Part shown: positions 50,166-52,142 of the stretch, one piece after another
How the letters are laid out: the number at the start of each line of letters is the position of its first letter
Position numbering within the stretch: the first letter of the stretch is position 1
The notes under the pieces: model-generated
Databases searched by the model: none
Seen by the model: only the letters and a program-made list of their open reading frames with translations
What the model was told of the DNA's origin: nothing
Assembly: GCF_040529045.1 (NCBI RefSeq)
Contig: NZ_CP131914.1
Location: 3,642,501 to 3,706,500, forward strand
DNA length: 64,000 nucleotides
Source: Xanthomonas indica
GTDB taxonomy: Bacteria > Pseudomonadota > Gammaproteobacteria > Xanthomonadales > Xanthomonadaceae
Direction: 5' to 3'
Position numbers and translations under genes: made by a program

Positions 50166-50567
50166 ATGTCCACTTCGTCCCGTCCGTCCCCTGCCCTCGC
50201 CGGCGCGGTCCTGCTCGGCGGCATCGGCCTGTCCGCCTCCGCCCTGGCCATGACCGACCTCGCCCAGGGCTATGCGCTGGGCGCACAGGCCGCCGTCACT
50301 CCGCCGCAACGCACCGAGACGACCACGCCGGCAACGCCGACGCCCACGCCGCCGGCGCACACCGGGCAGGCCGCCGACCCGGCCAAGGCCAGCGAAGGCG
50401 GCTGCGGCGGCAAGGCCGGCGACGGCAGTTGCGGCGCGCACGCCCCGGCGGCGGCCCCGGCCAAGCCAGAGGCAGCCGGCGCCACCGCCACGCCGCAGGC
50501 CAAGCACGACGACAAGGCCATGGCCGAAGGCAAGTGCGGCGAGGGCAAGTGCGGTGGCAGCCTCTGA
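50166..50567 (+). CDS. hvfA: HvfA/bufferin-type RiPP precursor with EGKCG motifs
   Basis: 133 residues. The signal peptide (PALAGAVLLGGIGLSASALA, cut near residue 28) sends it to the periplasm. A Thr/Pro/Ala-rich linker is followed by a C-terminal region with four Cys: C80 and C89 in GGCGGKAGDGSCG, and C124 and C129 in EGKCGEGKCGG. In HvfA-type peptides the MNIO enzyme converts Cys in EGKCG to oxazolone/thioamide groups that bind copper. Family known; modification here is inferred. AGGAG precedes ATG 50166. The next gene overlaps this one by 14 bp. Copper binding or buffering is the likely role. Confidence 0.88.
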   Translation: MSTSSRPSPALAGAVLLGGIGLSASALAMTDLAQGYALGAQAAVTPPQRTETTTPATPTPTPPAHTGQAADPAKASEGGCGGKAGDGSCGAHAPAAAPAKPEAAGATATPQAKHDDKAMAEGKCGEGKCGGSL

Positions 50568-51399
50568 ACCGAGGCCGCTGGCCGCGGCCAGTGCCGGCCT
50601 CGGGCTGCGTCGCGGCTTGCTCCAGGACTTGCTGCAGGCGCCAGCGGATGCGTTCGATTTCCTCGAATGCGCGCCGGACAACTGGATCGGCGTCGGCGGC
50701 CGTCCCGGGGAGCAGCTGCAGACGCTGAGCGCGCGCCATCCGCTCAGCTGCCACGGCCTGTCGCTGTCGCTCGGCGGCGTGGCCGCGCTGGACACCACCT
50801 TGCTGCAGCAGACCCGGCACTTCCTCGACCGGCACCGGGTCGCGCTGTACAGCGAGCACCTCAGCTACAGCGCCGACGACGGCCAACTCTACGAACTGCT
50901 GCCGCTGCCGTTCACCGACGAGGCGGTGCGCCATGTCGGCGCACGCATCGCCCGGGTGCAGGACGTGCTGGGCCGACGCATCGCGGTGGAGAACGTCTCC
51001 TACTATGCCGTGCCCGGCCAGGCCATGAGCGAAGCCGCGTTCGTGGCCGCGGTGCTGGACGAGGCCGATTGCGACCTGCTGCTGGACGTCAACAACGTGC
51101 ACGTCAACGCCAGCAACCACGGCGACGACGCGCTGGCCTTCCTGGCCGCCATGCCCAGCGCGCGCATCGCCTCGTACCACGTCGCCGGTCACCGCGACGA
51201 CGCCGCCAGCGGGCTGAAGATCGACACTCACGCCGCGCCGGTGGCCGACCCGGTCTGGGAGCTGCTCGGCGCCGCCTACCGCCTGCACGGCGTGCGCCCC
51301 ACCGTGCTCGAGCGCGACGGCCAGTTCCCGCCGCTGGGCGAGCTGCTGGACGAAGTGCAGCGCATCCGCGCCGCGCAGGCGCAGTCGCGCGGCGCATGA
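50554..51399 (+). CDS. hvfB: MNIO-type RiPP maturase (DUF692, HvfB-like)
   Basis: 281-residue iron-dependent oxidase of the DUF692 (MNIO, MbnB-like) family. TIM-barrel motifs include AGLGLRRGLLQDLL, FLECAPDNWIG (substrate contact), CHGLSLSLGG (His67), YSEHLSYS (Glu101, His102), VENVSYY (Glu146), LLLDVNNVHVN (Asp178, Asn181, His183) and SYHVAGH, residues that bind the iron cluster in this family. The start is taken as GTG 50554, overlapping the precursor gene and leaving the family N terminus intact. It would modify the Cys residues of the preceding peptide. Family and context agree strongly; the exact product chemistry is not visible. Confidence 0.92.
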   Translation: MAASEPRPLAAASAGLGLRRGLLQDLLQAPADAFDFLECAPDNWIGVGGRPGEQLQTLSARHPLSCHGLSLSLGGVAALDTTLLQQTRHFLDRHRVALYSEHLSYSADDGQLYELLPLPFTDEAVRHVGARIARVQDVLGRRIAVENVSYYAVPGQAMSEAAFVAAVLDEADCDLLLDVNNVHVNASNHGDDALAFLAAMPSARIASYHVAGHRDDAASGLKIDTHAAPVADPVWELLGAAYRLHGVRPTVLERDGQFPPLGELLDEVQRIRAAQAQSRGA

Positions 51400-52142
51400 A
51401 CGAAACCCTGCGCGCGCAGCAGTTCGCGCTCACCCAGCACCTGCGCGATCCGCGGCGGTACCCGCCGCCGGCCGGCATCCCGCCGCAGCGCCTGGCGGTG
51501 TACCGCGCCCTGTTCTTCGACAACCTGGCGCAGTTGCTGGGCGGCCAGTTCCCGGTGCTGCGCGCCACCCTCGGCGACGCGGACTGGGCGGCGCTGCTGC
51601 GCGCGTTCTGCGCCGAGCACCGCGCCCGCACGCCGCTGTTCCCGCGCCTGGGCGAGGAACTGGTGGCATTCCTGCAGCAGCGCGCGCCCGATCCGCAGCG
51701 TCCCTGGCTGGCCGACCTGGCGCACTACGAAACCGTGGAACTGCAGGTGCAGATCGACGACGCCGCGCTGCCGCCGCACGATCCGCACGGCGACCTGCTC
51801 GACGGCATCCCGCTGCTGTCGCCCTGGCTGCGCCTGCTGCGCTACCGCTGGCCGGTGCAGCGCATCGGCCCGGCCTGGCAGCCGGACACGGCACCGGCGC
51901 AGCCAACCTGCCTGTTGGCGCGACGCGAGGCCGACGGCCAGGTGCGCTTCGCCGAACTGGCGCCGCTGGCCTATGCCGTGCTGGCGGCGCTGCAGCCCGG
52001 CGCGCGCAGCGGACGAGAGCTGCTGCTGGACCTGGCCGCCGCGCACGGCCTTGCGCCGGACGCCCTGCTGCACGAGGGTGCGGCCCTGCTGCAGCGGCTG
52101 CGCGCGCAGGGCAGCGTGCTCGGCACGCGTCTGCCGGCGTGA
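51396..52142 (+). CDS. hvfC: RiPP maturation partner (DUF2063, HvfC-like)
   Basis: 248 residues. N-terminal DUF2063 domain: AQQFALTQHLRDPRRYPPPA, RLAVYRALFFDNLAQLLGGQ FPVLRATLG region, CAEHRARTPLFPRLGEELVA and WLADLAHYETVELQVQIDDA. The C-terminal half is a winged-helix-like region ending LLHEGAALLQRLRAQGSVLG. In the HvfBC and MbnBC pairs this partner binds the precursor peptide and presents it to the oxidase. The ATG overlaps the maturase stop by 4 bp. Confidence 0.92.
   Translation: MNETLRAQQFALTQHLRDPRRYPPPAGIPPQRLAVYRALFFDNLAQLLGGQFPVLRATLGDADWAALLRAFCAEHRARTPLFPRLGEELVAFLQQRAPDPQRPWLADLAHYETVELQVQIDDAALPPHDPHGDLLDGIPLLSPWLRLLRYRWPVQRIGPAWQPDTAPAQPTCLLARREADGQVRFAELAPLAYAVLAALQPGARSGRELLLDLAAAHGLAPDALLHEGAALLQRLRAQGSVLGTRLPA

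What the first reader, a model, noticed from the sequence alone, without database searches (positions are those of the whole stretch)
50166..52142. Complete HvfABC/bufferin-type RiPP operon with overlapping genes
A Cys-rich secreted peptide ending in EGKCGEGKCGG, a DUF692 MNIO oxidase and a DUF2063 partner lie head to tail with 14-bp and 4-bp overlaps. This is the arrangement of copper-binding, oxazolone/thioamide-modified peptides. The system class is described, but a xanthomonad example between the phosphate operon and rnt is little explored and could matter for copper tolerance on treated plants.
Basis: partly seen in the sequence, partly recalled or inferred. Interest (0 to 1): 0.82.

Follow-up and report, generated by a model that had tools for sequence, protein, structure and literature searches.

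The report
Copper-binding peptide operon in Xanthomonas
A Xanthomonas-type bacterium carries a compact three-gene operon that very probably makes a secreted peptide with chemically altered cysteines that bind copper; the kind of system is known, but this lineage has a stripped-down version of the peptide.

Summary
HvfB and HvfC pass NCBI's family cut-offs; HvfA passes the KCGExKCG domain cut-off but not the full HvfA model. This is an EGKCG-type (oxazolin/captophorin) operon, not a bufferin. The oxazolone/thioamide chemistry has been reassigned to 5-thiooxazole (PMC13097082, PMC13419390). The operon is in 18 of 20 genomes of the genus; phoU-hvfABC-rnt order holds in 38 of 52 named Lysobacteraceae loci. 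Only the C-terminal Cys pair is constant; inner Cys vary from 0 to 2. In 65 of 77 named loci the precursor has EF-hand motifs, as in EfhP of Pseudomonas aeruginosa; the 17 genus precursors read whole do not, and have a variable linker instead. The ECF sigma and doxX genes of some relatives are not at this locus. Best reading: a minimal Cu(I)-binding RiPP, modified in the cytoplasm and exported by Sec. New member of a known kind; modest interest as a natural EF-hand-less version. Copper function is untested.

The parts
50038..50065 (+). Terminator-like hairpin with T-run between phoU and hvfA, so hvfA probably has its own promoter
   Evidence: 2 terminator-like sites found in 49900-52300, 0.6 expected in shuffles; sequence
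50106..50115 (+). GTAGGCTTGG box, candidate core promoter element upstream of hvfA (tentative)
   Evidence: GTASGCTTGG exact in 16 of 19 aligned upstream rows; one match in the 64-kb window, 0.12 expected, 11 of 100 shuffles had one. Promoter role is inference
50154..50158 (+). Shine-Dalgarno AGGAG, 7 nt before the hvfA ATG
   Evidence: sequence
50166..50567 (+). hvfA: 133-aa EGKCG-type RiPP precursor, 4 Cys (C80, C89, C124, C129)
   Evidence: (NF050137 26.9 bits, cut-off 19.5)
50166..50249 (+). Probable Sec signal peptide, residues 1-28 (...SASALA)
   Evidence: sequence; judged by eye, no signal-peptide program run
50259..50279 (+). Conserved LxQGYAL segment just after the probable cleavage site (residues 32-38), possible recognition or processing element
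   Evidence: L32 and Q34-L38 invariant in 13 of 13 rows; QGY in 57 of 77 named precursors; role is inference
50394..50435 (+). Inner degenerate sites EGGCG (77-81) and DGSCG (86-90), variable in the genus
50526..50555 (+). Core motif EGKCGEGKCG (residues 121-130), the constant candidate modification sites C124 and C129
50554..51399 (+). hvfB: MNIO (DUF692, PF05114) peptide maturase, GTG start inside hvfA
   Evidence: (389.8 bits, cut-off 360)
51396..52142 (+). hvfC: DUF2063/NGO1945_C partner protein (HvfC family, RiPP recognition element)
   Evidence: (262.9 bits, cut-off 142)
49275..49988 (+). phoU, flanking gene (not part of the operon)
52184..52837 (+). rnt (RNase T), flanking gene (not part of the operon)

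Best explanation
A minimal EGKCG-type (oxazolin/captophorin) RiPP operon. HvfA is made with a Sec signal peptide. In the cytoplasm the HvfB-HvfC complex (di-iron MNIO plus RRE partner) binds it and oxidises Cys to 5-thiooxazole (-4 Da each): most probably the C-terminal pair C124 and C129, possibly also the degenerate sites C80 and C89. The peptide is exported by Sec, loses its signal peptide, and the flexible product binds Cu(I) in the periplasm or outside. Shown here: genes, families, conserved catalytic residues, constant tandem core, coupled overlaps, conserved neighbourhood. Inferred from studied relatives: chemistry, export and copper binding. Not shown for this organism in anything I saw: induction, metal bound, benefit.
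For: HvfB and HvfC pass curated cut-offs. The three residues whose change abolishes H. influenzae HvfB activity (N175, D242, H244) map through the 3BWW alignment (numbering offset of one inferred) to N180, D224 and H226, each at least 99% conserved in an 89-row alignment. Both core Cys in 18 of 18 hvf-positive genomes of the genus. hvfC follows hvfB in 80 of 80 named loci. Purifying selection in 5 of 5 pairs. PMC13097082 states that all characterised MNIO-PME1 cases install 5-thiooxazole and generally bind Cu. FonBC needed two repeats and fully modified a DGKCG variant, so DGSCG is plausible.
Against: HvfA scores only 20.3 against 95 for the full HvfA model. No doxX at the locus; the genome's one DoxX match lies elsewhere, among ORFs that look unrelated. 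H. influenzae HvfA has six modified Cys; two sites may bind little copper per chain. No sigma-70-type promoter match, though none is expected from shuffles either. Neighbourhood is not universal: 14 of 52 named Lysobacteraceae loci lack one or both flanking genes in the stretch held, and phoU is not in the stretch of 2 of 18 genus loci (L011, L025).
Confidence: 0.8

Rival explanations
1. The peptide is modified but its job is not copper buffering: like EfhP of P. aeruginosa, an EF-hand member of this precursor family, it acts mainly in a signalling or iron-linked role.
For: P. aeruginosa PA7's HvfB is 67% identical to the window's and the precursor beside it has 4 EGKCG and EF-hand motifs. EfhP controls iron uptake by calcium, and its EGKCG repeats were called not yet characterised (PMC11559002, title and two passages).
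Against: The 17 genus precursors read whole have no EF-hand motif, so the calcium part cannot apply. Characterised EGKCG products bind Cu.
Confidence: 0.13
2. (A version of the best explanation, not exclusive of it.) Only C124 and C129 are modified; C80 and C89 stay as thiols or form a disulfide.
For: Inner sites vary from 0 to 2 in the genus, with G, S or T mostly in place of K. In FonBC tests changes beside the Cys can lower turnover.
Against: FonBC tolerated A, R and T at position 3 and fully modified DGKCG. Both inner Cys are kept in all 7 four-Cys genomes.
Confidence: 0.4
3. A decaying remnant: the operon has no regulator, DoxX or EF-hand and is on the way out.
For: Two of 20 genomes of the genus lack it; G016 has an RcnB-like gene between phoU and rnt instead. 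HvfA evolves fastest of the three. In one genome (L020) the precursor has no stop at the usual place.
Against: Purifying selection on all three genes, conserved catalytic residues, constant core.
Confidence: 0.05

Closest known systems
Oxazolin, HvfABC with HvfX, nontypeable Haemophilus influenzae
   Same: Signal-peptide precursor with AEGKCGEGKCG core, HvfB MNIO, HvfC partner; the three tested catalytic residues are conserved
   Different: H. influenzae has three double motifs (six Cys) and a DoxX-like HvfX; here one double motif plus two degenerate sites and no HvfX at the locus
Fontiphorin FonABC and gonophorin NgoABC (captophorins)
   Same: EGKCG repeats with an MNIO-PME1 pair; 5-thiooxazole product
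   Different: FonA has seven sites; the precursor here has an A/P/T-rich linker and two constant sites
EfhP-type precursors (Buf_EGKCG|EF-hand_5), e.g. Pseudomonas, Pseudoxanthomonas
   Same: HvfB 63-77% identical in EF-hand loci; EGKCG pair and usually a QGY-like segment after the signal peptide
   Different: No EF-hand in the window's precursor
Bufferins (Buf1 DUF2282, Buf2)
   Same: MNIO plus DUF2063 logic, Sec signal peptide, thiooxazole
   Different: Different precursor family; HvfB below the BufB cut-off; no sigma gene at this locus
Methanobactin MbnABC
   Same: MNIO, Cys oxidation, copper
   Different: No Sec signal peptide on MbnA, different partner, oxazolone/thioamide product; MbnB cut-off not met

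Membership tests
EGKCG-type oxazolin/captophorin (HvfABC) operons | MNIO of the HvfB family | tested here: met
   NF003818 389.8 bits, cut-off 360
EGKCG-type oxazolin/captophorin (HvfABC) operons | DUF2063 partner with RRE (PME1/HvfC) | tested here: met
   NF050145 262.9 bits, cut-off 142; PF09836 and PF22106
EGKCG-type oxazolin/captophorin (HvfABC) operons | Precursor with repeated EGKCG | tested here: met
   NF050137 26.9 bits, cut-off 19.5; EGKCGEGKCG at residues 121-130
EGKCG-type oxazolin/captophorin (HvfABC) operons | Sec signal peptide on the precursor | tested here: inconclusive
   Looks clear by eye and is conserved, but no prediction program was run
EGKCG-type oxazolin/captophorin (HvfABC) operons | 5-thiooxazole product that binds Cu(I) | not testable with these tools
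   Needs expression, mass spectrometry and NMR
HvfA equivalog (NF050188) | Full-length HvfA model | tested here: not met
   20.3 bits, cut-off 95
Bufferin (BufABC) | BufB-type MNIO | tested here: not met
   NF050167 265.4 bits, cut-off 310
Bufferin (BufABC) | DUF2282 (Buf1) precursor | tested here: not met
   No Pfam match for HvfA up to E 0.01
Bufferin (BufABC) | Buf2 (6/12-Cys) precursor | not tested
   No Buf2 profile was on hand by that name; HvfA has 4 Cys, Buf2 has 6 or 12
EF-hand EGKCG precursor (EfhP type) | EF-hand in the precursor | tested here: not met
   No EF-hand match in HvfA; a Pseudoxanthomonas relative matches PF13202
Methanobactin | MbnB equivalog | tested here: not met
   TIGR04159 49.1 bits, cut-off 325

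The most novel reading that the evidence does not exclude
The operon is a natural separation-of-function version of the EfhP-type calcium/copper precursor: on the branch to this genus (and [Pseudomonas] boreopolis) the EF-hand was replaced by a disordered A/P/T-rich linker, leaving a minimal copper peptide with two constant sites. The phoU-rnt gap is a swap site in which this operon, an ECF sigma gene, doxX and a periplasmic RcnB-like metal protein come and go as alternative answers to metal stress.
Probability: 0.45. Interest if true: 0.5.

Novelty: new member of a known kind. Interest (0 to 1): 0.36.

Why it matters
If the reading is right, a small natural substrate of an HvfBC enzyme is at hand: two constant sites, two doubtful ones and no extra domain. 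That suits tests of what HvfC recognises, how many thiooxazoles are needed to hold copper, and what the EF-hand adds in EfhP-type relatives, whose EGKCG repeats were called not yet characterised (PMC11559002). It also corrects the chemistry to look for (5-thiooxazole). Any link to copper-treated crops is unproven.

Tried and rejected
Considered and rejected. Bufferin or methanobactin membership: scores below cut-offs. Co-transcription with phoU: judged unlikely because of a hairpin with T-run. The genome's one DoxX as HvfX: it lies at C1:1260495, beside a LysR-like and a LigB-like ORF (named by eye), not at the operon. A regulator shared with relatives: the Pseudoxanthomonas ECF sigma has only 28-31% matches in the own genome, so no clear ortholog. 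Sigma-70 promoter scan: none found, none expected. HvfA structure: mean pLDDT 49.5, no secondary structure from a 13-row alignment, so no fold search was made. PHROGs: no match for HvfB or HvfC. Plasmids: 24 records at E 1e-40, one at 60-80% identity, no Xanthomonas in the organism tally. Literature, open-licence PMC library only: 'DUF692'+'Xanthomonas' 3 papers (listing only), 'DUF2063'+'Xanthomonas' 0, 'MNIO'+'Xanthomonas' 0.

Rows dropped: 4 of 99 HvfB-type rows (L020, L060, L073, L082) had no precursor by my motif script; all four showed part or the whole of one on a second look in that call. L020 (EGKCG then EGTCG, no stop at the usual place) was left out of the Cys table, so that table covers 17 of 18 hvf-positive genus genomes. 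Identical HvfB rows were merged before the tree (95 to 88). One search found 118 relatives and kept the best 80. The alignment A1 used 12 of 18 genus precursors plus one of boreopolis. That g17 is the X. campestris/citri group is only a guess from genome size and closeness.

Full report
WHAT IS THERE. hvfA 50166-50567, hvfB 50554-51399 and hvfC 51396-52142 lie head to tail on the + strand with 14-bp and 4-bp overlaps. A hairpin with a T-run at 50038-50065 separates phoU from hvfA. NCBIfam gives: HvfA, KCGExKCG_twice domain 26.9 bits (cut-off 19.5) but the full HvfA model only 20.3 (cut-off 95); HvfB, HvfB-family maturase 389.8 (360) and BufB 265.4 (310, not met); HvfC 262.9 (142). Pfam gives PF05114 for HvfB, PF09836 and PF22106 for HvfC, nothing for HvfA. 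By sequence HvfB matches the solved MNIO 3BWW (E 7e-61) and HvfC weakly matches 3DEE (E 4e-4). The genome has a single PF05114 protein.

ORGANISM. Its nearest held genome (G006, 'same species') has a precursor identical to that of the named locus L032, Xanthomonas sp. F10. 'The genus' below means the 20 held genomes of that genus (g1). Two loci with Xanthomonas in their titles, L039 (X. chitinilytica) and L067 (XNM01), have EF-hand precursors and sit among Pseudoxanthomonas in the tree, so they are not counted in the genus.

ENZYME. Change of N175, D242 or H244 abolishes H. influenzae HvfB activity (PMC13419390, passage). Counting along the 3BWW alignment these correspond to N180, D224 and H226 here; the numbering offset of one was inferred by me and is the same for all three. 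Each is at least 99% conserved in an 89-row HvfB alignment.

CHEMISTRY. PMC13097082 (passages and sections 7, 11, 12, 13) re-examined H. influenzae oxazolin and assigned 5-thiooxazole. PMC13419390 (passages only), from authors who speak of the earlier HvfA report as their own, says the groups have since been reassigned. It also reports that HvfBC prefers HvfA with its signal peptide. The two 2024 PNAS papers were seen only as reference entries.

PRECURSOR ANATOMY. In 13 aligned precursors (the window, 11 others of the genus, one of boreopolis) two islands are constant: LxQGYAL just after the probable cleavage site, and K-x-M-x-EGKCGEGKCGG at the C-terminus; the middle varies. Cys counts in 17 of the 18 hvf-positive genomes: four in 7, three in 8, two in 2. 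One of the 17 (L019) ends EGKCGEGKCS; the 18th (L020) has EGKCGEGTCG. AlphaFold2 gives a mean pLDDT of 49.5 and no secondary structure, which fits a flexible chain, though the alignment was shallow.

RELATIVES. PF05114 is in 19 of 20 genomes of the genus, and the hvfB ortholog with hvfC in 18 of 20 (G016 and G017 lack it). In the family sample, 204 of 297 genomes have a match to this HvfB at E 1e-80, in 42 of 54 genera. Of 80 named loci, hvfC follows in 80. phoU upstream and rnt downstream together are found in 38 of 52 Lysobacteraceae and 7 of 7 loci without a family name, and in 0 of 17 Pseudomonadaceae, 0 of 2 Steroidobacteraceae and 0 of 2 others. Some contigs are short (48 of the 52 Lysobacteraceae loci have 4 kb or more on both sides), and several Lysobacter loci have the operon elsewhere.

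EF-HAND. A pattern for EF-hand loops hits the precursor in 65 of 77 named loci where one was found; Pfam confirms it for the one tested. The loops lie between or after the EGKCG motifs. The 12 without it are 6 of the genus, boreopolis, and 5 others (L047, L059, L107, L109, L110). On the HvfB tree of 88 distinct rows the 23 rows without it need 4 changes; the genus rows and boreopolis form one group of 18 (support 87/87), the genus rows alone 100/94, and boreopolis is a long branch. The root is a midpoint, so loss rather than gain is inferred from the EF-hand being present across Pseudomonas, Lysobacter, Thermomonas and Pseudoxanthomonas. Antoine et al. describe two precursor types, with 17-residue double repeats or with EF-hands (PMC12452194: abstract, section 15 and passages), and name EfhP for the second. 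A 2024 paper calls EfhP's EGKCG repeats not yet characterised (PMC11559002, two passages). The window's precursor is best seen as a minimal case of the first type, reached from the second.

THE phoU-rnt GAP. Within the stretches held, an ECF sigma gene lies upstream of hvfB in 11 of 52 Lysobacteraceae loci; doxX downstream in 3 and upstream in 6 of 52; an RcnB-like gene upstream in 3 of 52 plus boreopolis (Pfam check of examples). Between phoU and rnt, G016 has an RcnB-like frame and no hvf. G020 and the 7 g17 genomes also show an RcnB-like frame there, short in one; these were recognised by eye. HvfB has no match or only 34-36% matches in the 7 g17 genomes. The window has hvfABC alone, with no gene-sized gap on either side.

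EXPRESSION. The overlaps suggest translational coupling; a GTG giving the 14-bp overlap is found in 18 of 19 rows. The GTASGCTTGG box at 50106-50115 is exact in 16 of 19 upstream rows and occurs once in the window, as in 11 of 100 shuffles; its role is a guess.

VERDICT. A sound observation and a largely right class. The reading needs corrected chemistry, a narrower family name, and caution about the inner Cys and about crops. New member of a known kind, with an uncommon minimal precursor.

Noticed in passing
L149 (G016 C1:1834500-1842500) and L170-L177: Where hvfABC is absent, the phoU-rnt gap holds an RcnB-like His/Asp-rich, apparently secreted protein (short in L176); some genomes of the genus have both (L009, L022, L024).
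   Followed up: partly
L055:3852-4394, L075:3950-4495, L101:1624-2133: An ECF sigma factor gene sits upstream of an EGKCG-type precursor in Pseudoxanthomonas and Arenimonas loci; the passages and section of the 2025 landscape paper that I saw mention sigma genes for Buf1 operons, not for EGKCG ones.
   Followed up: partly
L020 (G019): The precursor has EGKCG then EGTCG, and its frame has no stop at the usual place and runs on over hvfB; real change or sequence error not settled.
   Followed up: no
L003-L008, L026-L031, L152: Some genomes of the genus carry further, distinct MNIO genes (34-46% identical to HvfB), in several cases two within about 3 kb; likely other MNIO families such as bufferins.
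   Followed up: no
L077:4480-5822: The P. aeruginosa PA7 locus has an EF-hand precursor with four EGKCG next to an HvfB relative (67% identical), which fits EfhP being a substrate of this enzyme type.
   Followed up: partly
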